Source of the DNA: Kaistella palustris DSM 21579
GTDB lineage: Bacteria; Bacteroidota; Bacteroidia; Flavobacteriales; Weeksellaceae
DNA length: 61,673 nt
Assembly: GCF_000422265.1 (NCBI RefSeq)
Contig: NZ_AULL01000001.1
Coordinates: forward strand, 1 to 61,673
Direction of reading: 5' to 3'
The translations under genes and the position numbers were made by a program. Shown here piece by piece: positions 2,618 through 61,673 of the stretch. Numbering within the stretch: the stretch's first letter is position 1; each line of letters starts with the position of its first letter. Under the pieces are notes generated by a model. The model had not been told where the DNA came from. It did no database searches and worked only from the letters and a program-made list of their open reading frames with translations.

Positions 2618-2630
2618 TAATTGTAAAAAT

Positions 2631-3486: not shown

Positions 3487-3701
3487 CAACGGCGCGGACG
3501 GTAATCTTCTGGACAGCACTTTAATAATTTCGGGTCTCCCCTGTTGTTGAGAATATGTTTTGGAGAAAATGCCGCTGCTTACAACACGGTATTTATACAA
3601 ACGGGGCGGAAGTTTTCATCGAAGATTTTTACGTAAAATTTAATTTCCGGCAAGTATAAAATTATGGTATATTTATCCCCGTTTGCAGAAATACCCAACC
3701 G
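3480..3701. repeat. ORF-less 222-bp cassette B3
   Basis: Third copy of the B unit. Its 96-bp core differs from B1 at scattered sites (GTAATCTTCTGGAC, CTGTTGTTGAG) with no length change. Keeping 222 bp in three diverged copies suggests constraint or copying by cassette recombination; no protein product is convincing. Confidence 0.75.
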
Positions 3702-3708
3702 TTAGCAG
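3576..3708 (+). repeat. attC-like site of cassette B3
   Basis: Left core TGCTTACAAC (3576-3585), right core GTTAGCAG (3701-3708), arms as in the B1 site. Confidence 0.85.
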
Positions 3709-3777
3709 AAATTTTAAACAACATTTTCATTAAATCGAAACTAGATAAAATTTAACGAAATATCACTAAATAATTTA

Positions 3778-4242
3778 ATGGACAAAATTCAACTTTACGA
3801 AACCTTCTTTCAAAAAAGTAATTCTTATTATCAGGAGCAACTAAAATACTATGAGCAAGGAAAAAAATGGAGATTTAATTATTCCGCTTTAATATTTGGT
3901 GTGTTTTGGTTTCTATATAGAAAAATGTATCTGGAATTTTTTATCATTTTCATTTTTTATTATTTGGAAACAATTTTTGAAAATGTAGTTTTAACAAAAC
4001 TTATTGGAATGGAGCAAACAAAAGTTGTGAATTTTTCTGTTACAATTGTTTTGTTAATAACTTTAGGAATTATTGGAAATAATTTATATATCAAAAAAAC
4101 GAATAGAACACTAAAAAATGCTGAAAAGAAATATTCTGAAATTGAAAAACAGAAAGAATATATCGCTAAAAAAGGAGGAACAAGTTATATTTATATAACA
4201 TTTTTACTATTTCTACTTATTCTTTCAGTATTCTTGAATTAA
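3778..4242 (+). CDS. Cassette F: DUF2628-like membrane protein
   Basis: This encodes 154 aa. A soluble start of about 30 residues is followed by WRFNYSA-L-I-FGVFWFLYRKMY, the pattern of DUF2628-type small membrane proteins (an aromatic-rich first span containing F-W-x-x-Y-R-K). Further spans lie near residues 60-75, 82-98 and 135-153, with a charged coil between 105 and 132. The function of the family is not established. It is the only gene of cassette F. Confidence 0.68.
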   Translation: MDKIQLYETFFQKSNSYYQEQLKYYEQGKKWRFNYSALIFGVFWFLYRKMYLEFFIIFIFYYLETIFENVVLTKLIGMEQTKVVNFSVTIVLLITLGIIGNNLYIKKTNRTLKNAEKKYSEIEKQKEYIAKKGGTSYIYITFLLFLLILSVFLN

Positions 4243-4251
4243 AAAAAACTT

Positions 4252-4385
4252 CTGCTAACAAAGTATTTCTATTAGCGGGTCGGAAGTTCCTATCATCAAG
4301 ATTTTCGCTAATTGTTCAATTTGTTATATTTACAAAAACTAGTTATAAAAAGTCCCCGCCAACAGAAATACCCAAACGTTAGCTG
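4252..4385 (+). repeat. attC-like site of cassette F
   Basis: The left core CTGCTAAC (4252-4259) matches GTTAGCAG at 3701. Arms GTATTTCTATTAGCGGG and CCCGCCAACAGAAATAC. The right core is GTTAGCTG (4378-4385). Confidence 0.88.
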
Positions 4386-4409
4386 TAATTCTCACCAACA
4401 AATTGCTAA

Positions 4410-4904
4410 ATGAAGATTCCAAAGAAACTTTTAATTTTTTTTATTTTAATTTTTGGAATTACTATATTTTATTTCGCAGAAAATATTATTCTAATAAAAT
4501 ATTTTTTTCGCGATGCAAGAAATATTGGCAAAGCAATTCCTGTAAAAATTTATGCGAATGGAAAATTGGATAATGAAATTAAAATATTTGATCAAAAAGA
4601 ATACTGGGATAAAGAAAAATCAAACTGTAAAATCATATATTTTCCAAATGCAAAATCCTATAAGTTTTTGTCAATAAATTATGATAATAATTACGTTGGG
4701 ACCCCAATTTCAACCGGAGAAAAGGCTTTCAAAATTATTAATGGAAATTTATTTCAATCTGAATTAGGTGCTAAATCATCACCAATTGAAAGTGAACTAA
4801 AGAGTTTAGGTTTTAATTCAAAATTTAAATTTACAAAAGAAAAAACTGAGTTTCTCTTACCAAAATCGGAATTTGGAATCGACTCATTAAGAATTGAGTA
4901 TTAA
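4410..4904 (+). CDS. Cassette G: membrane-anchored protein, unknown function
   Basis: This encodes 164 aa. A basic start (MKIPKK) is followed by a hydrophobic segment at about residues 7-33 without a lipobox, so probably an N-terminal anchor with the rest outside the cytoplasm. The soluble part is Asn/Lys/Phe-rich with no recognised motif. The gene is closed by the left core CAGCTAAC (4913-4920), which pairs with its start core GTTAGCTG; the rest of the attC is missing. Confidence 0.68.
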   Translation: MKIPKKLLIFFILIFGITIFYFAENIILIKYFFRDARNIGKAIPVKIYANGKLDNEIKIFDQKEYWDKEKSNCKIIYFPNAKSYKFLSINYDNNYVGTPISTGEKAFKIINGNLFQSELGAKSSPIESELKSLGFNSKFKFTKEKTEFLLPKSEFGIDSLRIEY

Positions 4905-4912
4905 AAGAACTA

Positions 4913-4930
4913 CAGCTAACATATTCTATG
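4913..4930 (+). repeat. Truncated attC at the end of the large array
   Basis: CAGCTAAC is present and pairs with 4378-4385, but it is followed by ATATTCTATG and then unrelated DNA instead of the usual arms and right core. The same ATATTCTATG follows the last left core of the mini-array at 9117-9126. Confidence 0.7.
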
Positions 4931-6572: not shown

Positions 6573-6752
6573 AACTATTTTAATTTCATTTTGACCACAA
6601 TTGCGCAATTTGAATATTTACTACCATTACTTATCTGTTTATAAACGTTTATAAACGGATATTGATTTGATTATTAAATCACTAAAAAACGATTCTTAAT
6701 GTCAGAAGTTGCATATATTTGAGAGTTATAGGGCATTTTAAAAAACGACACC
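6573..6752. other. Intergenic: secondary insertion or attI-like site of the mini-array
   Basis: No gene. It contains TTATAAACG and TTTATAAACG in tandem, forming the palindrome CGTTTATAAACG, around 6638-6658. The cassette H boundary follows at 6725 (GAGAGTTATAGGGC). The bases just before it (CATATATTTGAGAGTT) faintly resemble those before the mer cassette (CATATAAACGAGTT at 53944-53957). Confidence 0.5.
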
Positions 6753-7427
6753 GTGCAGACAAGAAAACATACAGCTTGGAAAAAAAACCGAAAATTCGGT
6801 GACGTAATGGGTGGACGCAAAAGACCCAAACTGGCGGACAATATTTTTAATAGAAAACACAACTTGACTGCCCCAAACGAAGGACAAGAAACACCAATTT
6901 TCATTTTAGACAATCCTTCACGGGACTTTTATTTCCCTGTGACAGTGAACGAAGTAAAAGAAATGCTTAACCGACTTCCAAAAGACCACACAGACCACTT
7001 AACACACGTTTGGCTTCAAAAAATCAAAAAGGCGGACTATTTGGATGGAAAAACTTTTCAAGGTTCATTTATTTGTGGAAGCGGAGTTTACCTAATTGTT
7101 CTTAATCCATTTCCAAAAGACAACAAAATGAGATTAGGAAAGAACAAACCGTTAAAGAAAGTTCTAAACTATTATAAAGACTTTACGACAGAATTGAAAG
7201 AGGACGAAAATGGTTGGTTTTTAAAGTGGACGGAAGAAAAGATAAAACAGTATTATTTGGAGAGCTTATTAATTCACGAAATCGGACACTCTATCGACAG
7301 TTTTTATAAACGATATTGGAGCAAGGCTACAGAACAAAAAAGAGAAAATTGGGCAGATAATTATGTTGCAGTTTGGGCAGACCAAGTAAGAGAAAAATAC
7401 GAGCCGAATGAGAAAAACGCCCTATAA
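6753..7427 (+). CDS. Cassette H: HExxH metalloprotease-like protein
   Basis: This encodes 224 aa with a GTG start at 6753; an alternative is the in-frame ATG at 6807. Residues LLIHEIGHSID, about 175-185, form a HExxH zinc-protease motif with a downstream acidic stretch (R-E-N-W-A-D-N) that could supply the third ligand. No signal peptide, so probably cytoplasmic. No exact family is named. Its TAA stop lies within the left core of its own attC (GCCCTATAAC). It is the only gene of the cassette. The role could be toxin, regulator-cleaving protease or antirestriction-like; the sequence does not say which. Confidence 0.7.
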   Translation: MQTRKHTAWKKNRKFGDVMGGRKRPKLADNIFNRKHNLTAPNEGQETPIFILDNPSRDFYFPVTVNEVKEMLNRLPKDHTDHLTHVWLQKIKKADYLDGKTFQGSFICGSGVYLIVLNPFPKDNKMRLGKNKPLKKVLNYYKDFTTELKEDENGWFLKWTEEKIKQYYLESLLIHEIGHSIDSFYKRYWSKATEQKRENWADNYVAVWADQVREKYEPNEKNAL

Positions 7428-7554
7428 CACGGGTTTTGCGTCAGGCGGGGTGACGTGCAAACTTGGAGCCTTGTGCTTCTAATAAACTTTAGTAATAAAT
7501 TGAAACTTTGTGCTCCGAAACCCGCCCGAACGCAAAGCCCGAAACCGTTACCAG
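7419..7554 (+). repeat. attC-like site of cassette H
   Basis: The left core GCCCTATAAC (7419-7428) is perfectly complementary to GTTATAGGGC at 6725-6734. Arms CGGGTTTTGCG...GGCGGG and CCCGCC...CGCAAAGCCCG. The right core is GTTACCAG (7547-7554). Loop of the TTGTGCTT type. Confidence 0.87.
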
Positions 7555-7590
7555 CAATGTTGACAAAAAACACGCCTTAACAAGAAGTGA

Positions 7591-8250
7591 ATGCACAAAT
7601 TTTACTTAGAATATGGAAAATCTATAATACATTTTGAAAGTATCAACTTTCAAATGTGTAATATTATCAGAAAAATTTGTACCAACGATTGCATGTTCAA
7701 AATTGAGGATAAACGGATAGACATATTACTTGAAGGTCTAACCGCAAGTCCACTAATTTCAAAATTTAAAAGTATTTTAAAAACAACCAATATTTACGAC
7801 AATCCTGAAGTCTCAAAATTGATAGAGATATTTAGAAAACAATTTATTAAGGCAATTGAAATTAGAAATGAGTTGGCTCATGGAACTTTCTTTGCTGGTG
7901 ATGCATTAGGAAATGTGAACAATTTCGAGTTGAGAAAACCAAAATTAACCAACAATGGTTATACTCAAAATGTGGTTACTTATTCCATTGCTTCACTTCA
8001 AGAACTTAATGACAATATTATGAACTTAGATAAATTTATTGGAAATCTGCAAATTTATTTATCAAAAAATGCTCCAGATGATTTTCGACTGAAAATATTT
8101 GAAGAAATGAGAAAAAATTTTGATAATATTAAAATTGAATTAAAAGAAATTAATAAATCAATCGAAATTTTAATTAAAATACACATTTATGACTGTTCCA
8201 ATTATCATTGTAGTTGCAATTCTGCTTTTTGTAATTATTCTACCATCTAA
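7591..8250 (+). CDS. Cassette I, first gene: HEPN-like protein
   Basis: This encodes 219 aa, all-helical in appearance. The string RNELAHG, about residues 91-97, fits the Rx4H catalytic motif of HEPN ribonucleases. HEPN proteins often act as toxins or as effectors in defence systems. The C-terminal end overlaps the next gene by 62 bp, so the two are presumably translated together. The last 20 residues are Cys- and aromatic-rich and are encoded only in the overlap, so the native end might differ. Confidence 0.65.
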   Translation: MHKFYLEYGKSIIHFESINFQMCNIIRKICTNDCMFKIEDKRIDILLEGLTASPLISKFKSILKTTNIYDNPEVSKLIEIFRKQFIKAIEIRNELAHGTFFAGDALGNVNNFELRKPKLTNNGYTQNVVTYSIASLQELNDNIMNLDKFIGNLQIYLSKNAPDDFRLKIFEEMRKNFDNIKIELKEINKSIEILIKIHIYDCSNYHCSCNSAFCNYSTI

Positions 8251-9082
8251 ATCTTCAAAAGATAAAATTATGGATGATGAATCAAAAATAAATGATTTAA
8301 ACAATCAATACTTTCTAAAACTTATAGAAAGAGAAAGAAATCCACAAGCGAAAGATATTTTGAAAAAAGCAAAACTCCTTTTTGATAATGGCGAAAGTTA
8401 TCATGCATTTGAATTTATGACTCATGTCGGAGTTCCAAAAGAAATTGCATATTCAAAAGACTCCGCAAAAATAAATAATTACCTTGGCTTCACTGATGAA
8501 AAGGCAAGAGATCTGTATACAGCGTATTTTTTGGAAGTTTCGAAAAGAGATTCACTTGCAAATGATAAAATTTGGATTGAAGAAGATGCTTTTGATAAGC
8601 ACAAAATTATTTTAAAAGAAAATGAGGTTTTATTTTCCGATTTCTTTTATAGTATTTATTATCTTGAAGAAAAAACCGTTCGAAGAAACATAAATTATTC
8701 AGGAGTTAGAGTTAACTATGGACCATTAAGAATGGGTAATCTTTCTTATTCTGCAAACGATGTAAAAGATTTAGTACCAATTGGAATCGGACAAGTATAC
8801 ATCACAAATAAGAGATTAATTTTTAAAGATAATCAAAATACTACAAAAGAAATAACTTTGAAATCAATTGTGGATTACTATCTTTATAAAGATGCAGTGT
8901 TGATTTGTAGAAATAACCGAAAAAATGTCCTTTTAAAAAGTTCAGCATTTCAAAATTATTCTCAACCTGAAAATGATTCAGTCGTATTATTAACAGATTT
9001 CCCAATACAATTCATAAACTTAATAAGTAGGATTGCAAATAAAACATACAGTATGAATCTTAATGAGCACAAATTTCAATAA
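8189..9082 (+). CDS. Cassette I, second gene: membrane-anchored PH/GRAM-like protein
   Basis: This encodes 297 aa. It starts with a single membrane span (about residues 3-19), then a helical region, then about residues 195-255 with the GRAM/PH-like pattern G-Q-V-Y-I-T-N-K-R-L-I-F (strand, turn, strand typical of short bacterial PH domains). Probably inner-membrane with a cytoplasmic C-terminal domain. It overlaps the HEPN-like gene by 62 bp. The pair shares one cassette, which suggests a two-component module; an effector-partner role is inference. Confidence 0.6.
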   Translation: MTVPIIIVVAILLFVIILPSKSSKDKIMDDESKINDLNNQYFLKLIERERNPQAKDILKKAKLLFDNGESYHAFEFMTHVGVPKEIAYSKDSAKINNYLGFTDEKARDLYTAYFLEVSKRDSLANDKIWIEEDAFDKHKIILKENEVLFSDFFYSIYYLEEKTVRRNINYSGVRVNYGPLRMGNLSYSANDVKDLVPIGIGQVYITNKRLIFKDNQNTTKEITLKSIVDYYLYKDAVLICRNNRKNVLLKSSAFQNYSQPENDSVVLLTDFPIQFINLISRIANKTYSMNLNEHKFQ

Positions 9083-9107
9083 TATGTAAAGCAATTCAAA
9101 AAACACT

Positions 9108-9126
9108 GCAGGTAACATATTCTATG
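9108..9126 (+). repeat. Truncated attC at the end of the mini-array
   Basis: GCAGGTAAC (9108-9116) is the left core for cassette I (start GTTACCAGC, one mismatch). It is followed by ATATTCTATG and then the terminator of the tra operon; arms and right core are missing. Confidence 0.65.
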
Positions 9127-52203: not shown

Positions 52204-52809
52204 AATCGATATTTTTTAAGTTAATTATTTATTTAGTTATTAATGTGTTTAATTGATTAGTTATTTATTTGGTAATGAGGATACTTTCTTTTACATTATT
52301 TTTTTTATAATGCTCTTAAATTAACCTTTAGATGGAAAAATTTGAGGCTTTTAAAAATATAAATGAACGCTGCGCTATTATCTTTATTCGTATAATTGAG
52401 GTGTCTTTTTCTTTGCTAAATGATTTTAAAAAAGGAATGATTTCTAAAACTGAAACATCGTGAAAGCCAGAAATAAATTTGCCAGTAGGGGAGGTGGGTT
52501 CGTCAATATTTAAATTAATCGAAGATTAGATATTGATGGATTCCCAAATTCATTTTTTTAGGAAGACTTCCATTTTTAATTTTGCATACAGAAAAACGCC
52601 AGAAATAGGAGGGAAGAAAAGCCGATTCGTTCTCCTATATTTTAAACCTAATGTCAGCTAAAAATTTACCTTCGGTTTTACCTAAGATGAACATGAATTT
52701 TGCGAAACGTTGTATACTATTTATCTGAAAAAAAATCAAAATAGAAAACCATATAAAAATATTTGTTATTGTAAATTTGATTATCTTTATTTCTCAAAAT
52801 CAGAGCATT
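52204..52809. other. Leader region and repeat copy 2, promoter of the integrase
   Basis: No gene. It holds TTTAGTTATT boxes (52233, 52256), the dispersed repeat 52379-52626, and TAAATTTG (52772-52779), a TAnnTTTG element 30 bp before the integrase ATG. Confidence 0.55.
52379..52626 (-). repeat. Dispersed repeat, copy 2
   Basis: Counterpart of 23024-23270: the same TTATCTTTATTCGTATAATT start, GGTGGGTTCGTCAATATTTA middle and GGAAGACTTCC palindrome. See copy 1. Confidence 0.7.
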
Positions 52810-53850
52810 ATGAATTGGTCTGCAAAATTAATTAACCATAGAGATGAAGAACGAATTGCGGTAGAATTCGAGAAGGACAAAGAATTGATCCAGCGGATAA
52901 AACTTATTCATGGTGCAAGATGGAGTCAACAAAAAAAGCTTTGGCACGTCCCGGATACAAAAGAAAACAGAGAACGTTTCCACATCATTCAGAAAGACAC
53001 CAAGATTTCACAAGAGGGGCAAGAACATCTGAAACAGTTCATTCGTTGGCTCTCATCGAAAAGATATAGTCCAAATACAATCAAAACGTACTCTGACGCA
53101 TTAAGATCCTTTTTGGTTTATAACCAGGCGAAAAATATTTGTGAAATTACTAATGCAGATGTACTTGATTATAATAATGATTACATTTTGAAAAATAAAT
53201 TATCTGCATCTTACCAGAACCAAGTGATTAGTGCTATAAAGTTATACTTTAGAACAGTACGTAAAACCAAAATAGAAGTAGATAAAATAGACCGTCCAAA
53301 AAAGCCTAAAACATTACCAAATGTTTTGAGTAAAGAAGAAGTAAAGAATATTTTGGATGCACATGCCAATATAAAGCACAAAATGATGCTTTCCTTGATA
53401 TACAGTTGTGGTCTGCGATGCAGCGAATTACTCCAATTAAGACCACTTGACATCGATTCTAAAAGGAATATTGTTCTGATCAAGCAAGCAAAAGGAAAAA
53501 AAGACAGAATTACACCATTATCTCCAAAAATTTTAGAATTATTGAGGACATATTATCAGCTTTACAAACCAAAAACCTATTTATTTGAAGGTCAAGAACC
53601 CGGTACTATTTATTCTCCCAAAAGCCTTCAAAGTGTATTAAAACAAGCATTGCAAAAAGCCAACATCAAAAAGCCCGTGACCTTACATTGGCTTCGCCAT
53701 AGTTACGCTACTCATCTATTAGAAGGTGGAACTGATTTACGCTACATTCAAGAACTACTTGGACATAACAGCAGCAGAACAACTGAAATTTACACCCACG
53801 TAAGCACAAAAAGCTTACAACAGATAAAAAGTCCGTTTGACGATTTATAA
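52810..53850 (+). CDS. Tyrosine recombinase, presumed integrase of the cassette array
   Basis: I use the ATG at 52810 (346 aa), which gives the typical MNWSAKL start; an in-frame ATG lies 33 bp upstream. A SAM-like N-terminal domain spans about 75-165. Catalytic residues: R203 in C-G-L-R-C, a Lys in the K-G-K-K-D-R turn, H293 and R296 in H-W-L-R-H, H319 in L-L-G-H, and Y328 in I-Y-T-H-V. It ends K-S-P-F-D-D-L, very like the R-S-P-L-D-A-L end of class 1 IntI. The additional IntI-specific segment between motif K and H-x-x-R is absent, so it looks Xer-like. It reads in the same direction as the cassettes. Confidence 0.88.
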   Translation: MNWSAKLINHRDEERIAVEFEKDKELIQRIKLIHGARWSQQKKLWHVPDTKENRERFHIIQKDTKISQEGQEHLKQFIRWLSSKRYSPNTIKTYSDALRSFLVYNQAKNICEITNADVLDYNNDYILKNKLSASYQNQVISAIKLYFRTVRKTKIEVDKIDRPKKPKTLPNVLSKEEVKNILDAHANIKHKMMLSLIYSCGLRCSELLQLRPLDIDSKRNIVLIKQAKGKKDRITPLSPKILELLRTYYQLYKPKTYLFEGQEPGTIYSPKSLQSVLKQALQKANIKKPVTLHWLRHSYATHLLEGGTDLRYIQELLGHNSSRTTEIYTHVSTKSLQQIKSPFDDL

Positions 53851-53883: not shown

Positions 53884-53961
53884 GTCTTACCATAATCAGA
53901 CAAATCCCTACCAAAAAGGTTGTATTTGTCTGACGAAGTAAGACATATAAACGAGTTGTGC
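53884..53961 (+). promoter_or_regulatory. Candidate attI with nested inverted repeat
   Basis: GTCTTAC (53884-53890) and GTAAGAC (53938-53944) enclose CAGACAAAT (53897-53905) and ATTTGTCTG (53924-53932). Eleven bases later comes GTTGTGCG (53955-53962), whose reverse complement CGCACAAC ends the mer cassette. Its place between recombinase and first cassette fits an attI. Confidence 0.65.
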
Positions 53962-53984
53962 GTCACCCTAAAAACCCACCGCAC

Positions 53985-54046
53985 ATTTAGCACATTTGGT
54001 TTTTCCGACACTCAAAGCCAACGCTAAAAAACCAAAAGAGCTAAAT
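53985..54046. repeat. Hairpin inside the mer cassette leader
   Basis: ATTTAGC...TTTGGTTTTT and AAAAACCAAA...GCTAAAT form a long imperfect stem, flanked on both sides by CCCACCGC. It is not an attC (no core pair) and lies before the mer promoter. Confidence 0.55.
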
Positions 54047-54092
54047 CACCCACCGCTGACAAAGAAGAATTGTTAAAAACTATAATTAAGTA

Positions 54093-54125
54093 TTTGCTTA
54101 AATAAGAAAACTATTTGTATTTTTG
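54093..54125 (+). promoter_or_regulatory. Promoter and operator of the mer operon
   Basis: TTTG (54093-54096), 21-bp spacer and TATTTTTG (54118-54125) fit the Bacteroidota consensus. The dyad TTAAG...CTTAA overlaps the -33 region and is a likely site for the ArsR-type repressor encoded next. Confidence 0.7.
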
Positions 54126-54155
54126 CTGCGTTATTAAATCCTAAACAAGGAAATT

Positions 54156-54533
54156 ATGGAAAACAATCAATCGTGTATCCGTGTGTTTGCCGACAAGGTT
54201 CAAATAGACAATTGTAGAGAAATACTTCAAACCAACGACAAGGCATTCAGTCAACTGAGTGGACTTTTAGCATTGGCAGGAAACGAAGTAAGGTTAAAAA
54301 TCTTATTTCTCTTAGAAGAAGAAAACGAACTTTGTCCTTGCGACCTTTCAGACATTCTCGGAATGAGCATCCCTGCCGTTTCGCAACACCTCAGAAAACT
54401 AAAAGACGGAAACGTCATTGAAGGTAGAAGAGAAGGACAAACCATTTTCTACTCTTTGAAACAGGAGCAACTTACTTTACTTCGTCCATTTTTTAAACAC
54501 ATCATAAACAATTCAAAAAAGGAAACAGTATGA
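54156..54533 (+). CDS. ArsR/SmtB-family metal-sensing repressor of the mer operon
   Basis: This encodes 125 aa. The winged helix-turn-helix carries M-S-I-P-A-V-S-Q-H-L-R-K-L-K-D as recognition helix. Metal-binding Cys are likely in E-L-C-P-C-D-L (about residues 65-71) and near the N-terminus. It should release DNA when mercury binds. It replaces the MerR-type activator of proteobacterial mer operons. It overlaps the next gene by 4 bp. Confidence 0.87.
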   Translation: MENNQSCIRVFADKVQIDNCREILQTNDKAFSQLSGLLALAGNEVRLKILFLLEEENELCPCDLSDILGMSIPAVSQHLRKLKDGNVIEGRREGQTIFYSLKQEQLTLLRPFFKHIINNSKKETV

Positions 54534-55135
54534 ACAAGAAAAACAACAGACTTGTCGGAGCGGGTGTGCTTTCGGCAGTAGCAGCATCACTTTGCTGCAT
54601 TACACCTGTATTGGCTCTTATTTCAGGAGCTTCAGGAGTGGCATCTACCTTTTCATGGATGGAACCAGCAAGACCTTATCTAATCGGTATCACCGTTTTG
54701 GTATTGGGCTTTGCTTGGTATCAGAAACTCAAACCACGAACAGCCGAAGAAATCCAATGTGATTGCGAAGAAGACGAAAAAAAACCCTTTATGCAGACCA
54801 AAACATTCTTGGGAATTGTAACCGTGTTTGCAGCCTTGATGCTCGCTTTTCCAAACTATGCACACATTTTCTATCCTTCAAACGACAACAAGGAAGTTGT
54901 AATCGTCAATGCTTCTGACATCCAAACGGTAACTTTTGATGTAAAAGGAATGACTTGCAATGGTTGTGCTTCACACGTAGAAAATGATGTGAACAAATTG
55001 CCAGGCATTGTTAAGGTAGATGCGATTTATGAAGAAGCGATTGCCAAAGTAGAATTTGACCAAACCAAAGTGAGTATCGCTCAAATTGAAGAAGCCATCA
55101 ACGGTACAGGTTACAAAGTGGTTGGCAAGAAATAG
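54530..55135 (+). CDS. MerT-like mercury transporter fused to a MerP-like domain
   Basis: This encodes 201 aa. Membrane spans near residues 8-35 (containing S-L-C-C-I-T-P, the Cys pair that takes Hg2+), 45-62 and 95-112. A heavy-metal-associated domain with G-M-T-C-N-G-C follows at about 137-200. It brings Hg2+ into the cell. The fusion replaces separate MerT and MerP in one chain. Confidence 0.87.
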   Translation: MNKKNNRLVGAGVLSAVAASLCCITPVLALISGASGVASTFSWMEPARPYLIGITVLVLGFAWYQKLKPRTAEEIQCDCEEDEKKPFMQTKTFLGIVTVFAALMLAFPNYAHIFYPSNDNKEVVIVNASDIQTVTFDVKGMTCNGCASHVENDVNKLPGIVKVDAIYEEAIAKVEFDQTKVSIAQIEEAINGTGYKVVGKK

Positions 55136-55182
55136 TATTTTTTTGCCTTTTGTATTTAAGAACTTAATTAAATAATTACACA

Positions 55183-55542
55183 ATGAAAAAGAATTTAATT
55201 CTATTGAGTGCTTTGTTCCTAATTGGAATTGCTCAGCTCAATGCACAATGTTGCAAACCGACTGACAATAAAGCACAAACAGCAAATACAACACAGCAAG
55301 AAGGTAAGACCCTGCAACTGAAAATCACGGGAATGACTTGTGCAGGTTGTTCCAACCATATTTCAAATGCCCTCAAAGAAGTGGACGGCATTATTGAACA
55401 CAAAGTGGAATATCCGGGCGATTTGGCAACCATCCAATACGACCCAAAGAAAACAAATCCTGACGCTATCATCAAGGTTATTGAGCAGACAGGCTATAAA
55501 GCCGAAATCATTAAGGAAAATCAAAAAGAGAAATCATTATGA
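55183..55542 (+). CDS. Periplasmic heavy-metal-binding protein (MerP-like)
   Basis: This encodes 119 aa. A signal peptide (ends L-N-A-Q) is followed by a Cys pair (Q-C-C-K) and an HMA domain with G-M-T-C-A-G-C near residue 49. It would capture Hg2+ outside the membrane and hand it to the transporter. It overlaps merA by 4 bp. Confidence 0.85.
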   Translation: MKKNLILLSALFLIGIAQLNAQCCKPTDNKAQTANTTQQEGKTLQLKITGMTCAGCSNHISNALKEVDGIIEHKVEYPGDLATIQYDPKKTNPDAIIKVIEQTGYKAEIIKENQKEKSL

Positions 55543-57191
55543 ACAAAGAAATAATAAAACTTGACATCATAGGAATGACCTGCGACCATTGTGCAACAGG
55601 CATTGAAAAATTACTTTCCAAAAATGAAGGTGTAAAAGAAGCTAATGTGAGCTATCCAAAAGCTACTTGCGAATGTTCTTTTGACCCTACCAAAACCAGC
55701 AAAGAAGAAATCATTAATACCATCAACGGCACAAAAAACTATCGTGTAAAAAGTGAAATCCCTGATAATGGAAACAGCGGAATTAATCAATTTGATTTAA
55801 TCATTATCGGTGGCGGTTCGGCTGCATTTTCGGCAGCAATCAAAGCCGAAAGTTTAGGATTATCGACCTTAATGGTAAACGGTGGTTTGGACTTTGGCGG
55901 TACTTGTGTCAACGTGGGTTGTGTGCCTTCTAAAAATCTTATTCGTGCAGGCGAGTCGGCTTATCACGCTACACATTCCAACTTTGAAGGCATCAAGCCA
56001 AAAGGAGTTGATATTGATTTCGCTCAAATCATCAAAGACAAGAAAAAATTAGTAGCCACACTTCAAGAGAAAAAATATATGGATGTGGTAAGCGATTTTG
56101 AAAACCTGACTATGCTAAAAGGTTGGGCAAAATTCAAAGACAACAAAACCATTTTGGTTGATGGCAAGGAATACAAAGCCTTCAAATTTTTAATTGCTGC
56201 GGGAGCTACGACCAACATTCCGACTATTGAAGGATTGGACAAAATTGACTACTTGACCAACGTTTCCCTTTTCGACTTGGAAGAAAAACCCGAAAGCTTG
56301 ACCATTATGGGAGCAGGTTACATAGGTTTGGAAATTGCAATGGCGTACAATCGTTTAGGCGTTAAAGTCCGAATCATTGAATTTACCGACCGTGTTCTAC
56401 GGACACAAACCCCAGACATCAGTGAAGCATTGGAAACCCAAATGCGAAAAGAAGGCATTGAAATCTTACCTAATTTCAGAGCCGTGAAATTCGAGAAACA
56501 AGCGAATGAAACCATCATTCACTGTAAATGTCCTGACGGTTCATTTACGCAAATTATAGAAAAAGGTAAGGTAGTAATTGCCACAGGCACAAAAGCCAAT
56601 ACAAGCCAATTAGGGTTAGATAACATTGGTTTGGAACTCACCAAAAGCGGACATATCGCTGTGAATGAAAAAATGGAAACCAATCTACCTAACATTTACG
56701 CAGCAGGTGACGTAACCAACACCCCTGCATTTGTTTATACAGCCGCTTTTGAAGGTAAAATTGCCGTTGAAAATGCGTTCTCAGGAACAGATAATAAAGC
56801 CGATTATTCTTCTTTACCTTGGGTGGTGTTTACTGACCCACAAATTGCAGGGGCAGGTTTAGATGAAGCACAGGCAGAATCAAAAGGCATTCCGTTTGAA
56901 GTGTCAAAATTGGAATTGAAAGACGTACCGAGAGCCATAGCAGCCAACGACACAAGGGGTTTCATCAAACTCATTCGTAACTCGGAAACTGACAAACTTA
57001 TAGGTGCAAGAGTAGTCGCACCCGAAGGTGGAGAACTCATACAACAATTAAGTATGGCAATCAAATACGGAATAATGGTGAAAGACTTAGCAGACAGTTT
57101 CTACCCTTATTTGACTTTGGGAGAAGGTATAAAATTAGCAGCAATAACTTTCGGAAAAGACGTATCAAAATTAAGTTGCTGTGCCAGTTAA
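55539..57191 (+). CDS. merA: Mercuric reductase MerA
   Basis: This encodes 550 aa. An N-terminal HMA domain (G-M-T-C-D-H-C) precedes the flavin-disulfide reductase fold: FAD-binding I-I-G-G-G-S-A-A, redox pair C123/C128 in G-T-C-V-N-V-G-C, NAD(P)H-binding G-A-G-Y-I-G-L, and the C-terminal L-S-C-C-A-S pair. It reduces Hg2+ to volatile Hg0 in the cytoplasm. Last gene of the four-gene cassette. Confidence 0.95.
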   Translation: MNKEIIKLDIIGMTCDHCATGIEKLLSKNEGVKEANVSYPKATCECSFDPTKTSKEEIINTINGTKNYRVKSEIPDNGNSGINQFDLIIIGGGSAAFSAAIKAESLGLSTLMVNGGLDFGGTCVNVGCVPSKNLIRAGESAYHATHSNFEGIKPKGVDIDFAQIIKDKKKLVATLQEKKYMDVVSDFENLTMLKGWAKFKDNKTILVDGKEYKAFKFLIAAGATTNIPTIEGLDKIDYLTNVSLFDLEEKPESLTIMGAGYIGLEIAMAYNRLGVKVRIIEFTDRVLRTQTPDISEALETQMRKEGIEILPNFRAVKFEKQANETIIHCKCPDGSFTQIIEKGKVVIATGTKANTSQLGLDNIGLELTKSGHIAVNEKMETNLPNIYAAGDVTNTPAFVYTAAFEGKIAVENAFSGTDNKADYSSLPWVVFTDPQIAGAGLDEAQAESKGIPFEVSKLELKDVPRAIAANDTRGFIKLIRNSETDKLIGARVVAPEGGELIQQLSMAIKYGIMVKDLADSFYPYLTLGEGIKLAAITFGKDVSKLSCCAS

Positions 57192-57195
57192 TCCG

Positions 57196-57265
57196 CCCCA
57201 AAGGCACACACTCTTGCAAGTCGCACCAGCCAACGCTTGACCAAAACTTGCAAGAGAGAGTGCCT
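57196..57265 (+). terminator. Large hairpin after merA
   Basis: AAGGCAC..CTCTTGCAAG and CTTGCAAGAG..GTGCCTT form a long imperfect stem just after merA. No T run, so it may be a terminator or a processing signal. It is separate from the attC that follows. Confidence 0.55.
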
Positions 57266-57327
57266 TCCCTACCCCAAAAAATCCTACCTTTGAAAATTGA
57301 CTAAACCGACTGAAAATAAAGGGCGAA

Positions 57328-57460
57328 CGCACAACATTGTGTATAAGCAATAGCGGGTGAAGTGGTAAAATCAAGGTCTGTGCTTTTAATAAGCTTTGTG
57401 CTAAACTGAAAGGTTTGTACTTTCAAATCCGCTACTGCTCATACACGAAACCGTTACCTG
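57328..57460 (+). repeat. attC-like site of the mer cassette
   Basis: The left core CGCACAAC (57328-57335) pairs with GTTGTGCG at 53955. Arms GTGTATAAGCAATAGCGG and CCGCTACTGCTCATACAC pair with two G-U wobbles. The right core is GTTACCTG (57453-57460). Loop with repeated TTTGTGCT strings. Confidence 0.87.
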
Positions 57461-57487
57461 CTATCTCACAAAAAACAATCGTCTACA

Positions 57488-58024
57488 ATGAAGATAATTT
57501 TAACAATTTTGGCTCTATTTATCATTGGTTGTAAAAAGAAAGAAAAATATACTGAAGTAAGAAAAACTTTGGAAAAAGTTTTAATTGAAGACCAGAAATT
57601 TAGAAATCCATATATTCCTGAGAAACAAAATGCAATTGACAGAAATAATACTAAAATTGTTACAAAAATCATTGACAGTCTGGGTTGGCTTGGAAAAGAC
57701 GATATAGGTTACGACGCAAATCTTGCGCTATTTATGGTGATTCAACACACTAACAAACTTTCAACAATGGAAAAATATCTTACCATAATGAAAGAAGAAA
57801 AAAATAGCAATAAAGTGGATAAAAGACAGATTGCATATTTAACGGATAGAGTTGAATTACTTAATGATAGAAAGCAAATTTATGGCACTCAGTATTCTAT
57901 TGACAAAAATGGCATTAAGTTTATTGACAATCTTATAAATCCAGAAAAAGTTAACGAAAGGAGAAAATCAATGGGTATGGAACCTGTTGAAGAATATTTA
58001 ATGGTTTTAAATGAGAATGATTAA
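57488..58024 (+). CDS. Cassette J: lipoprotein with DUF6624-like domain
   Basis: This encodes 178 aa. The lipobox ends I-I-G-C near residue 15. The pattern M-V-I-Q-H-T..., Y-L-T-D-R-V-E, Q-I-Y-G-T-Q and the final E-K-V-N-E-R-R-K-S-M-G-M-E-P-V-E-E-Y-L fits DUF6624, a family of unknown function. It is the sole gene of cassette J. Confidence 0.72.
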   Translation: MKIILTILALFIIGCKKKEKYTEVRKTLEKVLIEDQKFRNPYIPEKQNAIDRNNTKIVTKIIDSLGWLGKDDIGYDANLALFMVIQHTNKLSTMEKYLTIMKEEKNSNKVDKRQIAYLTDRVELLNDRKQIYGTQYSIDKNGIKFIDNLINPEKVNERRKSMGMEPVEEYLMVLNEND

Positions 58025-58031
58025 AGAGACA

Positions 58032-58165
58032 GCAGGTAACAAGCTATTTCTATTAGCGGGGTTGAAGTTTACATCATGAAGATTTTTGCTAATTGTTCAT
58101 TTTGTTATATTTACAAATATCAGTTATAATAAGCCCCGCCAACAGAAATACCCAACCGTTATACG
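58032..58165 (+). repeat. attC-like site of cassette J
   Basis: The left core GCAGGTAAC (58032-58040) is perfectly complementary to GTTACCTGC at 57453. Arms of the TATTAGCGGGG/CCCCGCCAACAGAAATA type. The right core is GTTATACG (58158-58165). Confidence 0.88.
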
Positions 58166-58172
58166 ACATTTT

Positions 58173-59036
58173 ATGAAAATAGCGATGAAATCAAGAGTTT
58201 TTATTATTTTATTATTTATTTCGAATTTTGTTTTTGGACAATCTTCTCAAGAAATTATGAAAAGTGAGTTGGAAAAAATGAAATTTTTATTCTTAAATAA
58301 AAGTTACAAAGGATTTTCAACATTTGTATATCCAAAAGTTATTCAAATGTACGGAAACGAAGAAAAGATGATTGAGAAAACTAAATCAAGTATTCTAGAA
58401 ATGGAAAATGATGGATTTAAATTTGTTAACATTTATTTTAAAAATTTCAACGATGCCATTACAAAAAATAACGAGCTCCAATCTACATTTACACAAGTGA
58501 TTTTAATGAATACTCCAAAAGGAAAAATAATCGGAGAATATACAATGATTGGAATTTCAAGCGACAATGGGAAATCTTGGAAATTTATTGATACTTCTGG
58601 ATATGATGAAAAAATAATTCAAAACAATTTTCCTAATTTGGATGAAACAATAATCATAAAACCCCAGGTAAAAATGTTTCTTGACGAAAATAACTTGAGA
58701 AAGAAATGTTCAGAATTTAAAAATATTGAATTACAATCAATTTCGCCGTTTAGTTTCAAAAAAGCTTCTGTCGTTATTTTTGACAACAAAACAAAAGAAA
58801 CTGCAGAAGACGGAAGCTATATTGCTTCGAAAGTTGTGAGAAATATTGAAAATCCATGCAAAATGGATTTCATAATTGAAGAAATTCAAAACAAGGCAAA
58901 GAATATGTATAAAATTGGCGATATTATGCATATGGAATTGACAGGATTTGAAAATGAGGTATATTATTTCATAGCAACATTGAATAATAATGACTTAATT
59001 ACTTCTGACAAATTTAAAGTTGTTAAAACCTTATAA
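58173..59036 (+). CDS. Cassette K: secreted protein, unknown function
   Basis: This encodes 287 aa from the ATG at 58173 (or 58185); the frame upstream lies in the attC. A signal peptide ends near F-V-F-G-Q-S. The mature part has helices first and beta strands later, with no recognised family. Sole gene of cassette K. Confidence 0.72.
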   Translation: MKIAMKSRVFIILLFISNFVFGQSSQEIMKSELEKMKFLFLNKSYKGFSTFVYPKVIQMYGNEEKMIEKTKSSILEMENDGFKFVNIYFKNFNDAITKNNELQSTFTQVILMNTPKGKIIGEYTMIGISSDNGKSWKFIDTSGYDEKIIQNNFPNLDETIIIKPQVKMFLDENNLRKKCSEFKNIELQSISPFSFKKASVVIFDNKTKETAEDGSYIASKVVRNIENPCKMDFIIEEIQNKAKNMYKIGDIMHMELTGFENEVYYFIATLNNNDLITSDKFKVVKTL

Positions 59037-59042
59037 GAAAAA

Positions 59043-59178
59043 CGTCGTATAACAAGCTATTTCTATTAGCGGGGTTGAAGTTTACATCATGAAAATTTTC
59101 GGTAATTGTTTATTGTGTTATATTTACAAAAACCAGTTATAATAATCCCCGCCAACAGAAATACCCAACCGTTACCAG
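59043..59178 (+). repeat. attC-like site of cassette K
   Basis: The left core CGTCGTATAAC (59043-59053) matches GTTATACGACA at 58158 with one mismatch. Arms of the TATTAGCGGGG/CCCCGCCAACAGAAATA type. The right core is GTTACCAG (59171-59178). Confidence 0.88.
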
Positions 59179-59200
59179 CCATATTAGAACGACACCGAGA

Positions 59201-60598
59201 ATGAAACGAACATTGACAATATTTTTACTTCTACTTAACTGTTTTGCTTTTGGACAATCCAGAAACGAACTTGCGAACTCTAAACTTTATTTCAGAGCAA
59301 CTTACTTTGACAAGAAAAACGAATTTATCGGACTACAAACAAGAACTAACTTAACCGACACGATTATTGACAACGTAAAATATCACAAATTCCAAACAGC
59401 AGACTTTACAGACTATTCGGACAAACAAGACAAAAAAACTTTCTACGAAACTTTTACAAACGGCATTTATTGTTTGCTTGACAATAGCAAAAAAATCGTT
59501 CACAAAATCAACTACCAAACTAACAACGAACAGACAGGAACAATCTTCGGCAGACAAACACAAATTTTGCTTGAATTTATTGACACACGAAGTAGTTATC
59601 CAAGAGACAGTTTAGTTCCGACAGAAAAAACACCAAAAAAATATTATCCGACAGACAATTCAGAAATTTATCTTGTAATTATTCCCGACTTACAATCGCT
59701 TGTCGTTTCAAGCAACGGACAGTTTTATACCAAACAGTTAATGGGCGACAATTACAACGACATAACCAAAGGTTTACAAAACAATTTTACCGCTTCAACA
59801 AAATTTGACATTCAAAAGGGCGATGAAGTTCAACTGTTTTACCGAAGAAAATGGTATGACGACACGACTAATCTTGCCGAATACGAAGACAAACAATTCA
59901 AGAACTTCAAGTATGTAGGCGACACAGTAGCAAACAATACAAAAGCGTTGAAGTTTGAAGTTGAAAGCTACAATTATTTAAGCGGCAATTACGACAGTCA
60001 CGAAGAACTTTTAATAGCTGTTACAGACAGCGGATATTATGTCGGTTATCAATTTGTGCCTTTTCAAGACTACAAAACCGAATTGAAAATAATTGAAACA
60101 GAAAACGGGAAAGACTTGTTTTTACAAGGCGTTACGTTTGACACAATAAACGGAAACACTTATCAAAAAATCGTTCAAGCAAAAAGCGACCCATACAGAT
60201 ATTATATTTTGCCATTCTTTCCAATGCCGTTTGTTGAATTTGGTAATGTGCAAGGAATAATTACTTATACCAAAATCAAAGGAATTGAAAAAGGCAAAAA
60301 ACGAGAACGGACTTACATAACGAACGAAAATAATATCAGAGATATAATCAGCAAGACAAAGAACGAAGTAGAAGTAATTATTTACTTTGTTGACAAAGCA
60401 GAAGTTGAAATAGAAATTCAAGACTACGACACAGAAAAAACTATTGGAACGACAAAAGCAAAAGCGAAAAAAGGATTAAATTCGTTCGTTGTTCGTTCTG
60501 ACAATTTTGAAAAGGACAAACAATACAGAGTGCAAATAAGCTATAAAGGGAAAAACAATTCGGGTAGTTTTTCAAATAGCGTAACGACAAAGTATTGA
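59201..60598 (+). CDS. Cassette L: secreted protein, unknown function
   Basis: This encodes 465 aa. The signal peptide ends C-F-A-F-G-Q-S. Rich in Asn, Asp, Lys and Thr; the last part (about 375-460) looks like a beta sandwich (E-V-E-I-Q-D-Y-D...Y-R-V-Q-I-S-Y-K-G). No family recognised. The longest single-gene cassette here. Probably exported, periplasmic or surface. Confidence 0.7.
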   Translation: MKRTLTIFLLLLNCFAFGQSRNELANSKLYFRATYFDKKNEFIGLQTRTNLTDTIIDNVKYHKFQTADFTDYSDKQDKKTFYETFTNGIYCLLDNSKKIVHKINYQTNNEQTGTIFGRQTQILLEFIDTRSSYPRDSLVPTEKTPKKYYPTDNSEIYLVIIPDLQSLVVSSNGQFYTKQLMGDNYNDITKGLQNNFTASTKFDIQKGDEVQLFYRRKWYDDTTNLAEYEDKQFKNFKYVGDTVANNTKALKFEVESYNYLSGNYDSHEELLIAVTDSGYYVGYQFVPFQDYKTELKIIETENGKDLFLQGVTFDTINGNTYQKIVQAKSDPYRYYILPFFPMPFVEFGNVQGIITYTKIKGIEKGKKRERTYITNENNIRDIISKTKNEVEVIIYFVDKAEVEIEIQDYDTEKTIGTTKAKAKKGLNSFVVRSDNFEKDKQYRVQISYKGKNNSGSFSNSVTTKY

Positions 60599-60614
60599 CA
60601 ACAGAAAGAAATAC

Positions 60615-60750
60615 GGCTGGTAACAGGGTATTGCCAAAATGGCGGGTGAAGTGCTACAATGAAACATTTGTGCAAGGTTCAACAGCAGTAGTTCTATTGA
60701 GCTTTTGTACTAATAATCCGCCACTTCGGCAATACCCGAACCGTTATCCG
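60615..60750 (+). repeat. attC-like site of cassette L
   Basis: The left core GGCTGGTAAC (60615-60624) is perfectly complementary to GTTACCAGCC. Arms GGGTATTGCC...GGCGG and CCGCC...GGCAATACCC. The right core is GTTATCCG (60743-60750). Its sequence from 60652 on is repeated at window position 1. Confidence 0.87.
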
Positions 60751-60784
60751 ACATTTTATACAACCGTATTTAAAAATAAATATT

Positions 60785-61384
60785 TTGAAAATTGGGCGAA
60801 TTTTACAAATTGTTTTTTTGATATTTTTTATGTCAATAACTTCATGCAATGAAAAGTATCCCGAAGATAAGTCTGTCGATTTCGAGCAAAAAGTGTTTGA
60901 CGAAATATTTTTAGAAGCAGTTGATTCTACTTTGATTGATATGCGAACTTATACAGGATTCCAATATACGGATAAGCAAAGAGATTCAATTAAAAAAGAT
61001 ACTTTAAATAGAGTCGTTGCTTTCAGTATCGTAAACAATAAAGTCCCAATAGATATTTTAACAAAAATTCCCAAAAAGTACAACACTATCAACGATTCGA
61101 TATGGAATTTTAATCTCGAAAAATATAGATCTCCAAAATATATTTTCAAAAATGCTTCTGAATTAACACTGGACAGAGAATTAATCGAATGGCAAAAAAA
61201 ATACACTAAATTTTCTGGTGCATTAAGTTTCTCAAAAATTTATTTTGATAAGCAAAGACAGAATGGAATTTTTGAAGCAGGTTATTATTGTGGTTCAAAA
61301 TGTGGAGTTGGTTTTGTGGTTTATATTAAGAAAATTAAAAGTAACTGGAAAGTTATAAAAATAGAGAGAAGCTGGATTTCGTAG
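60785..61384 (+). CDS. Cassette M: putative lipoprotein, unknown function
   Basis: This encodes 199 aa with a TTG start at 60785; no in-frame ATG gives a better N-terminus. Signal of the type M-K-I-G-R-I-L-Q-I-V-F ending in a lipobox S-I-T-S-C near residue 20. No family recognised. It is the only gene of the cassette that is missing from the junction seen at the window start. Confidence 0.65.
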   Translation: MKIGRILQIVFLIFFMSITSCNEKYPEDKSVDFEQKVFDEIFLEAVDSTLIDMRTYTGFQYTDKQRDSIKKDTLNRVVAFSIVNNKVPIDILTKIPKKYNTINDSIWNFNLEKYRSPKYIFKNASELTLDRELIEWQKKYTKFSGALSFSKIYFDKQRQNGIFEAGYYCGSKCGVGFVVYIKKIKSNWKVIKIERSWIS

Positions 61385-61390
61385 AAAAAC

Positions 61391-61587
61391 GCCGCATAAC
61401 AGTGTATTTGCAAAAAACGGGGTTAAATTTTTCCTTTGAGAATTTATTTCTAATATTCGCAAAATGCTTTTTATCTTTCTTTTTTTCTTAATTTAGAAAT
61501 CTGAAAAAGCATTTTGCTCCAGGCGGTTTTCCTTACCACTTTTGGTTTGCAGCAGCCCGTTCTTCGCAAATACTTTTTCGTTAGTTG
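61391..61587 (+). repeat. attC-like site of cassette M (long form)
   Basis: The left core GCCGCATAAC (61391-61400) matches GTTATCCGAC at 60743 in 8 of 10 positions. Arms TGTATTTGC...CGGGG and CCCG...TCGCAAATA. At about 190 bp it is longer than the others because of a T-rich loop. The right core is GTTAGTTG (61580-61587). Confidence 0.75.
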
Positions 61588-61625
61588 CAAGCGTTCACAA
61601 ACGAGACTTTAAAATTCACTATACA

Positions 61626-61673
61626 ATGTCAATTCAAAATATGCAAATCGAAAATGAAAATGTTAAAGAAAAA
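61626..61673 (+). CDS. Start of cassette A gene (second copy, cut by window end)
   Basis: The first 16 codons are identical to those of the gene at 138-581. If the plasmid is circular this is the same gene seen from the other side; it is preceded by the attC of cassette M rather than that of cassette L. Confidence 0.6.
   Translation, partial: MSIQNMQIENENVKEK

What the first reader, a model, noticed from the sequence alone, without database searches (positions are those of the whole stretch)
53955..61673. Integron-like cassette array in a flavobacterial plasmid
About 16 units (14 here and across the window junction, two at 6725-9126) each start with bases that are the reverse complement of the left core at their own end, with 7-10 bp matches that differ from cassette to cassette. 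Fourteen complete attC-like palindromes are present. Matching private cores cannot arise by simple repeat duplication; they are the product of attC-type recombination at G/TT. Integrons are best known from Proteobacteria; an array with long (130-190 bp) sites on a Bacteroidota plasmid is unusual. I do not know whether it has been described.
Basis: partly seen in the sequence, partly recalled or inferred. Interest (0 to 1): 0.95.

Follow-up and report, generated by a model that had tools for sequence, protein, structure and literature searches.

The report
Widespread overlooked integron system in Bacteroidota
This stretch is a string of gene cassettes, each ending in its own hairpin-forming DNA site, beside a recombinase gene that likely moves them, and matching sites occur in 178 of 395 sampled Bacteroidota genomes, although a published survey of that phylum names only one complete integron.

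Summary
The window holds 16 cassettes and 14 complete attC-like sites. Each cassette starts with G/TT plus 12 bases that pair with its own end; pairing stops at 15 bp and fails at position 11 (A/G), so the bottom strand pairs better. The first array starts at a tyrosine recombinase (52777-53850) followed by a conserved attI ending at G/TT (53955). The recombinase resembles XerA and lacks the domain that defines integron integrases (IntI). Relatives head arrays in many Bacteroidota, in two layouts. In 296 family genomes, 77 of 78 with a full-length integrase have attC sites, against 117 of 218 others. Near-identical cassettes sit in different neighbourhoods with homology ending at G/TT. A published Riemerella experiment (PMC13148043) integrated a segment of exactly the length our rule predicts (956 bp). 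tet(X) and blaVEB cassettes carry cores of this type. It works like an integron but fails the IntI membership test, so I file it as a new variant: integrons with an I2-less integrase. Catalysis was not tested. attC-like folding in Riemerella was already in print; ten literature searches found no account of the whole system.

The parts
52777..53850 (+). Tyrosine recombinase (integrase, type A, 357 aa) at the head of the first array, co-oriented with it
   Evidence: NF040815 XerA 228.2 bits over its cut-off 220; TIGR02249 214.7 under its cut-off 265, broken in two stretches; no I2 insertion; 84-88% relatives L006, L007, L038
53864..53957 (+). attI: inverted repeat plus ..CATATAAACGA then G/TT (G at 53955)
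   Evidence: Conserved in four type A loci and diverging right after G/TT; motif in 66 of 74 loci; hairpin z-score -5.6 and -6.6
53955..57452 (+). Cassette 1: ArsR-type regulator, MerT/HMA protein, an unscanned 119-aa ORF and a mercuric-reductase-like gene, with its attC 57333-57455
57453..58157 (+). Cassette 2: DUF6624 protein, attC 58038-58160
58158..59170 (+). Cassette 3: no Pfam family at E <= 0.01, attC 59051-59173
59171..60742 (+). Cassette A: 465-aa ORF, attC 60622-60745; identical copy (1576 bp) on contig C17
60743..61579 (+). Cassette B: 199-aa ORF, long attC 61398-61582
92..736 (+). Cassette C: 147-aa ORF, attC 620-739; also reached from 61580 across the window junction
737..958 (+). 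222-bp cassette without ORF, attC 841-961 (further copies at 3257 and 3479)
959..1803 (+). Cassette, attC 1683-1806
1804..2609 (+). Cassette, attC 2489-2612
2610..3256 (+). Cassette, attC 3136-3259
3257..3478 (+). 222-bp cassette without ORF, attC 3361-3481
3479..3700 (+). 222-bp cassette without ORF, attC 3583-3703
3701..4377 (+). Cassette, attC 4257-4380
4378..4920 (+). Last cassette of this run: own end core present, right half of attC not seen
   Evidence: direct reading
6710..6727 (+). Orphan type-B-like attI (TGCATATATTTGAGA then G/TT) with no integrase next to it
   Evidence: ATATTTGAGA then G/TT also precedes the first cassette of three of four loci headed by a type B integrase
6725..7546 (+). 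Cassette, attC 7426-7549
7547..9116 (+). Cassette with two ORFs; own end core present, right half of attC not seen

Best explanation
The array is an integron-type gene-capture system in which an XerA-like recombinase lacking the IntI-specific domain likely cuts folded attC sites between G and TT, so that each gene with its own site is predicted to leave as a circle and re-enter at the attI beside the integrase or at another attC. Shown by sequence: cassettes bounded at G/TT, attC palindromes, attI, integrase at array heads, co-occurrence, and cassettes shared between different neighbourhoods. Inferred: bottom-strand recombination. The bottom strand pairs through G-T where the top strand has A-C mismatches, and the 15-bp outer stem is complete only when the cassette's own start is joined to its own end, that is, in the circle. 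Selection on the circular form would keep each private core matched. Inferred: the integrase next to the array is the enzyme.
For: Core rule: over 187 unique core pairs from 18 sequences, positions 4-10 and 12-15 pair in 143-179 of 187 (1-3 by construction), position 16 drops to 26, and position 11 is never Watson-Crick paired (start A in 186, bottom-strand G-T in 170); own match 9.49 of 11 against 4.92 for other cassettes and 5.14 for the site as it stands in the array. Bottom strand more stable in 278 of 286 circle-form and 259 of 286 array-form sites. attI: conserved up to G/TT and divergent after it; motif in 66 of 74 named loci against 2.8% of random stretches; the first cassette finds its own complement in 35 of 42 loci against 16 of 781 and 17 of 840 controls. 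Architecture: of 80 named type A/B loci, 32 have R1 sites, and all 83 matches lie on the integrase's strand. Type B integrases lie divergent at the head of four of four loci, type C at 10 of 10, chosen from genomes having both parts. Co-occurrence: family, 77 of 78 with full-length integrase against 117 of 218, p = 5e-16; phylum, 75 of 84 against 103 of 311, p = 2e-21. Movement: 83 homologous whole-cassette pairs, 32 with both homology ends within 15 bp of G/TT; 23 of the 32 are copies of one 222-bp cassette of this genome and nine are others, e.g. 1327 bp at 99.9% between two genera, and cassette A identical over 1576 bp in two places of this genome with 2 shared bases before GTT. Experiment in print: R. 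anatipestifer integrated 27 bp + aph(3')-IVb + 140 bp without homology (PMC13148043, section 11 read); the same gene on pRCAD0416RA-1 lies in a cassette of exactly 956 bp = 27 + 789 + 140.
Against: No recombination was tested here. Of 178 attC-positive phylum genomes 103 have no integrase hit at E <= 1e-90, and 9 of 84 integrase genomes have no attC hit, so another enzyme may serve some arrays. In G052, the genome carrying the Riemerella relE-hthR cassette, the integrase has no R1 site in the 20 kb fetched around it. Of 83 cassette pairs, 51 do not end at both boundaries, as expected for shared runs of cassettes or similar neighbouring attC, but not proof of block movement. 48 of 80 named loci show no R1 site at E <= 1e-3, in part because 34 contigs end within 1 kb of the integrase. 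The IntI-specific domain is described as necessary for integron recombination (PMC9668308, passages), and it is absent here. The attI pattern was chosen after seeing the sequences, and 8 of 74 loci lack it.
Confidence: 0.86

Rival explanations
1. Cassettes are shuffled by homologous recombination between similar attC repeats, and the recombinase next door is an unrelated plasmid-resolution enzyme.
For: attC sites within a genome are similar enough for recombination; tandem 222-bp units look like repeat amplification; Xer-type enzymes are common on plasmids.
Against: Exchange inside attC repeats would not put junctions at G/TT nor keep each cassette's start paired with its own end. Integrase and arrays co-occur and share a conserved attI. 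The published transformation occurred without flanking homology.
Confidence: 0.07
2. It is a canonical IntI integron or an orphan attC cluster, served by an ordinary IntI encoded elsewhere in the genome.
For: The attC folding, layout and cassette content are integron-like; a blaVEB-1 cassette with this core type sits beside intI1 in a class 1 integron, so IntI1 seems able to use such sites.
Against: No IntI over the TIGR02249 cut-off in this draft genome; its best matches are the type A and type B recombinases. The nine array-head integrases printed in the alignment lack I2.
Confidence: 0.04
3. Cassettes are moved by the host's chromosomal XerC/XerD acting on attC-like folded sites; the adjacent gene is a decayed or accessory recombinase.
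For: Many attC-positive genomes lack a detected integrase of this family; two further Xer-like proteins are encoded in this genome.
Against: Does not explain the attI beside the integrase, the association of the two, or the divergent layout at 10 of 10 chosen type C loci.
Confidence: 0.03

Closest known systems
Class 1 integron (IntI1, attI1, attC)
   Same: attI beside an integrase, same-orientation cassettes of mostly one ORF, foldable attC, cut between the first and second base of GTT (PMC8876359, passages); one cassette (blaVEB) is shared, with homology ending 0-1 bp before GTT
   Different: Integrase is 28.8% identical to IntI1 and lacks the roughly 43-aa I2 insertion; core is GTTRNNNGNNA in 209 of 243 starts and GTTRRRY in 8; 15-bp R stem with a fixed unpaired position 11
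Chromosomal superintegrons (e.g. Vibrio; recalled) and the complete integron of Salinibacter ruber (PMC9024848, passages)
   Same: Long chromosomal arrays of dozens of cassettes beside a divergent integrase
   Different: Those have IntI with I2 (recalled); the survey's passages name integrase-only (In0) elements in Bacteroidetes in the earlier version and one complete integron, in Salinibacter, in the second; I did not see its CALIN counts for the phylum
XerA-type recombinases (PDB 5hxy, 4a8e; NF040815)
   Different: Extra N-terminal region of about 75 aa in types A and B, and association with cassette arrays
attC-like 3' region of aph(3')-IVb in Riemerella anatipestifer (PMC13148043)
   Same: Same cassette, and an experiment that integrated it precisely
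   Different: The section and passages read name no integrase, attI, core rule or array family and call the mechanism not yet fully elucidated
tpnF-tet(X3) unit of Acinetobacter plasmids (PMC7722449, passages)
   Same: On L212 a recombinase 48.3% identical to the window's over residues 91-357 is followed about 190 bp later by tet(X3), whose upstream core GTTATGTGCCATTTT equals that of the Riemerella tet(X) cassettes and matches its own end at 8 of 11 positions with A/G at 11
   Different: attC is cut short after tet(X3), and an ISVsa3 (IS91-like) transposase gene lies beyond it

Membership tests
Canonical integron (IntI-based) | Integrase with the IntI-specific additional domain around patch III | tested here: not met
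   No insertion in W, L030, L033, L025, L051, L167, L168, L069, L104 (nor in the Xer-like comparison rows) against 43 aa in IntI1; IntI4 2a3v aligned with a jump from residue 185 to 246 where the query has 18 aa
Canonical integron (IntI-based) | TIGR02249 integron integrase over its cut-off | tested here: not met
   214.7 bits against 265; 206.6, 196.0, 176.7 and 168.9 for four other array-head integrases; none over cut-off in the genome
Canonical integron (IntI-based) | attC: imperfect palindromes between AAC and GTT that fold as single strand, bottom strand favoured | tested here: met
   bottom strand more stable in 278 of 286
Canonical integron (IntI-based) | Core site GTTRRRY | tested here: not met
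   8 of 243 distinct cassette starts; GTTR in 243 of 243
Canonical integron (IntI-based) | attI next to the integrase at the head of the array | tested here: met
Canonical integron (IntI-based) | Same-orientation cassettes | tested here: met
   Longest ORF sense in 278, antisense in 4, none of 40 aa in 18, of 300 cassettes
Canonical integron (IntI-based) | Cassettes exchange as blocks at G/TT | tested here: met
   32 of 83 homologous pairs end within 15 bp at both boundaries, 9 of them not the 222-bp unit; 1576-bp identical copy
Canonical integron (IntI-based) | Integrase catalyses attI x attC and attC x attC recombination | not testable with these tools
   needs a recombination assay
XerA family (NF040815) | NF040815 over its cut-off of 220 bits | tested here: inconclusive
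   Met by W (228.2) and L038 (222.4), not by types B (208.3, 195.5, 193.2); types C were not scanned
XerA family (NF040815) | Acts at a single chromosomal dif site | not tested
   -
CALIN (attC cluster lacking an integrase) | No integrase next to the cluster | tested here: not met
   Integrase about 105 bp upstream of the first array; no integrase was seen beside the small 6725-9114 array

The most novel reading that the evidence does not exclude
Bacteroidota own a second integron system, built on XerA-like integrases without the domain thought essential for attC recombination, with a 15-bp wobble-marked R stem and hairpin attI sites; it is present in nearly half of the phylum's sampled species, and it is the source platform from which tet(X), aph(3')-IVb, blaVEB and other resistance cassettes reached Proteobacteria and class 1 integrons.
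Probability: 0.6. Interest if true: 0.95.

Novelty: new variant of a known kind. Interest (0 to 1): 0.88.

Why it matters
Integron surveys recognise an integrase by the IntI-specific domain and sites by attC covariance models (PMC9668308, PMC9024848, passages read), so array-head integrases of this kind would not be counted. If right, nearly half of the sampled species of a major phylum have a gene-capture platform not yet catalogued, the requirement for the I2 domain in attC recombination falls, and the strand choice of attC can rest on G-T wobbles at fixed places. It also gives a mechanism for the homology-free uptake of resistance genes reported in Riemerella and a possible place of origin for cassettes such as tet(X3) and blaVEB. 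All of this is directly testable with standard integron assays in laboratory strains.

Tried and rejected
Rejected: chance (0 of 20,000 permutations); a hidden canonical IntI in this genome (draft assembly); simple tandem duplication (private cores).

Led nowhere or stayed open: the shared AACATATTCTATG at the two array ends (4918, 9114) has no explanation. The N-terminal 75 aa of types A and B were barely covered by the structure comparison (model residues 78-357 spanned), and only a sub-threshold DUF5710 hit was found. A first rule-based site scan in Python gave similar counts on both strands and was dropped for the covariance model. The R1 model is calibrated only roughly, is tuned to one family, and the genome search scored at most 12 (family) or 9 (phylum) candidates per genome, so site counts are lower bounds; no R1 search of an unrelated phylum was made as a negative control. 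Energies may rest on RNA rather than DNA parameters (the DNA set was loaded only if the module offered it); one search used DNA parameters.

Choices made by hand: 'full-length' means a match starting at or before model position 67 with over 430 bits or, for a few, over 415 bits; G018 and G057 (start 54-57, 305-310 bits) were counted as short. With any integrase hit at E <= 1e-70, 114 of 116 genomes have sites. Rows dropped: partial site at window 1-94; cassettes over 4,500 bp (4,000) or under 60 bp; sites whose ends were not AAC/GTT within 3 bases; attC bodies over 220 bp. A missed site merges two cassettes into one. Three sites missed by the R1 cut-off (window 61398, L011 3491 and 6245) were added by hand. 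The control of classical cassettes is five genes, of which ant(2'') pairs over 12 bp without the position-11 mismatch, arr-2 and dfrA14 over 8, aac(6')-Ib over 6; qnrVC4 was not resolved.

Literature: ten searches found no description of the system; only open-licence PMC texts are held.
Full report
What is there. The window is contig C10 of an 18-contig genome. Its genus handle is shared with G143, whose five best site scores on one contig equal those of named locus L092, Kaistella gelatinilytica, so the window is inferred to be Kaistella. On the + strand 16 cassettes lie at 53955-61580, 92-4918 and 6725-9114, with 14 complete attC-like sites. A second contig, C17, carries ten more sites. C17 ends in a copy of cassette A identical over 1576 bp, with only two identical bases before its GTT. 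The 95-bp overlaps between contig ends are taken as assembly overlaps; they join cassettes only at G/TT.

The core rule. Each cassette begins G/TT and ends AAC, and its first 15 bases pair with its own last 15. In 187 unique core pairs from 18 sequences, positions 1-3 match by construction; positions 4-10 and 12-15 pair in 143 to 179 of 187, and position 16 in 26. Position 11 is A at the start in 186 of 187 and is never a Watson-Crick pair; 170 of 187 would form G-T on the bottom strand. Own match is 9.49 of 11 scored positions, against 4.92 for other cassettes and 5.14 for the site as it stands in the array. The full outer stem therefore exists only when start and end of one cassette are joined, as in an excised circle. 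In a later set of 243 distinct starts, 243 are GTTR, 209 GTTRNNNGNNA, 8 GTTRRRY, and 241 have A at position 11.

Strand asymmetry. Inside the sites too, A-C mismatches of the top strand become G-T pairs of the bottom strand: two sites fold at -17.5 and -23.1 kcal/mol on the bottom strand against -11.7 and -20.8 on top. Over 286 circle-form sites the bottom strand is more stable in 278, with one tie; in array form in 259. That the enzyme uses the bottom strand is an inference from this and from class 1 integrons.

attI. In four type A loci the roughly 100 bp after the integrase stop are conserved up to G/TT and diverge right after it. In 80 named loci kept from one genome scan (the best 80 of 292) the motif TATA..AGTT[AG] lies within 230 bp of the stop in 66 of the 74 that have at least 112 bp left, against 2.8% of random stretches; the pattern was chosen after looking. 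From that GTT, the first cassette's own complement is found at 9 or more of 11 positions in 35 of 42 loci with over 900 bp left, against 16 of 781 random GTT starts and 17 of 840 shuffled cores. Three of four type B loci share ATATTTGAGA before G/TT; an orphan copy lies in the window at 6710.

Spread. Model R1, built from 14 sites, matches 194 of 296 genomes of the family and 178 of 395 of the phylum, in 97 of 170 genera, at E <= 1e-3, own genome included. Chromosomal arrays with dozens of sites exist, for example in G114, G176 and G110. Array-head integrases come in three types: A co-oriented (W, L006, L038; in the named loci all 83 R1 matches, in 32 of 80 loci, lie on the integrase's strand), B divergent in four of four loci (L030, L033, L025, L051), C divergent in 10 of 10 loci that I chose because their genomes have both parts. 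Co-occurrence is strong: 77 of 78 genomes with a full-length integrase have sites against 117 of 218 others, and 75 of 84 against 103 of 311 in the phylum. The 103 are either arrays that have lost the integrase or arrays served by an enzyme below my threshold.

Movement. Among 300 cassettes from 43 arrays, 83 pairs are homologous over at least 85% of their length at 75% identity or more; 32 pairs end within 15 bp of G/TT at both sides. Of the 32, 23 are copies of a 222-bp unit within this genome. The nine others include a 1327-bp cassette at 99.9% between two genera (L172, L175), also on Riemerella plasmid L008 at about 92%, and an 869-bp one at 99.8% between two genomes. The remaining 51 pairs do not end at both boundaries; I read them as shared runs or similar neighbouring sites without checking each.

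Independent experiment. A 2026 paper (PMC13148043; section 11 read whole) reports that R. anatipestifer took up aph(3')-IVb by natural transformation and integrated exactly 27 bp before and 140 bp after the gene, without homology, that the 3' part folds like attC, and that the mechanism is not fully elucidated. It also states that RCAD0416 carries the gene on a plasmid. On that plasmid (L008) the gene lies between GTT 16529 and GTT 17485, a unit of 956 bp, equal to 27 + 789 + 140; the split differs by one base (28 + 139) because the G at either cut can be counted at either end. The G/TT rule and the R1 sites on L008 came before this paper was opened.

Relation to known systems. It works like an integron. 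It is not a member of the IntI-defined family: the defining domain was tested and is not there, the TIGR02249 cut-off is not reached, and the core differs. Reviews list Bacteroidota among phyla with integrons (PMC8618304, passages), but the passages of the IntegronFinder 2.0 survey name only integrase-only elements and one complete integron, in Salinibacter, for Bacteroidetes (PMC9024848), and the eleven taxa of the attC-source models include no Bacteroidota (PMC8352920, passages). Because surveys require the IntI-specific profile (PMC9668308, passages), array-head integrases of this kind would not be counted. The ten literature searches found no account of the whole system; the attC-like fold in Riemerella is already in print.

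Reach into resistance. The core of tet(X3) in Acinetobacter behind a related recombinase equals that of the Riemerella tet(X) cassettes, and blaVEB appears both behind a related recombinase and, with the boundary exactly at G/TT, in arrays with intI1 or another annotated integrase, with the position-11 mismatch in its core. That this system is the source of these cassettes is an inference; direction of transfer was not tested.

Limits. No catalysis was shown, R1 has no negative control in another phylum, the genus is inferred, and circularity of the plasmid rests on an assembly overlap.

Noticed in passing
L212:4001-6310 and L213 (Acinetobacter tet(X3) plasmids): A relative of the window integrase is followed about 190 bp later by tet(X3), whose upstream core GTTATGTGCCATTTT is the one of the Riemerella tet(X) cassettes; the attC after the gene is truncated.
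   Followed up: partly
L214:4154-5775, L215, L216, L217: blaVEB-3 sits 110 bp behind a relative of the integrase with an attI-like stretch and core GTTAGCGG; the same cassette (VEB-1) lies in two integron arrays, one beside intI1, where homology ends 0-1 bp before GTT and its 125-bp attC matches model R1 at E 2.5e-5.
   Followed up: partly
L209 (G052:C1:1-14000): In a 2,164,087-bp single-contig genome (a size I recall for R. anatipestifer ATCC 11845) the CDF transporter gene is a cassette between attC 2875-2999 and 3872-3995, and relE-hthR ends in attC 6049-6172 of the same array; genes of these types flank the published insertion.
   Followed up: partly
L209 and L210: The first and last roughly 10 kb of contig G052:C1 carry the same attC and ORF series at a fixed offset, which looks like an untrimmed circular overlap, so its second relE copy is probably not real.
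   Followed up: no
window 737-958, 3257-3700; L011; L052: A 222-bp cassette without an ORF of 40 aa recurs on three contigs of this genome, copies 92-97% alike where aligned.
   Followed up: no
window 4916-4931 and 9112-9127: Both array ends carry the last cassette's end core followed by AACATATTCTATG and no visible right attC half; cause unknown.
   Followed up: no
window 53955-57452: The first cassette behind attI is a multi-gene mercury-type cluster of 3.5 kb, large beside the median of 834 bp.
   Followed up: no
L053-L132: 27 of 80 contigs end within 400 bp after the integrase gene, as if assemblies break at the repeated attC sites, which would hide these arrays in draft genomes.
   Followed up: no
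window 52777-53020: Types A and B integrases share an N-terminal region of about 75 aa, with a sub-threshold DUF5710 hit in the window's protein; type C lacks it.
   Followed up: partly
window 24122-31162 and 14891-19568: Two proteins with Eco57I-type restriction-modification methylase domains, and TraG-type and coupling-protein conjugation genes.
   Followed up: no
110 cassette proteins of L024-L034, L011 and the window: Pfam matches are scattered (71 families at E <= 1e-4, none in more than 3 of 110 proteins); a few single proteins match anti-phage defence models such as PD-Lambda-1 and AriA.
   Followed up: no
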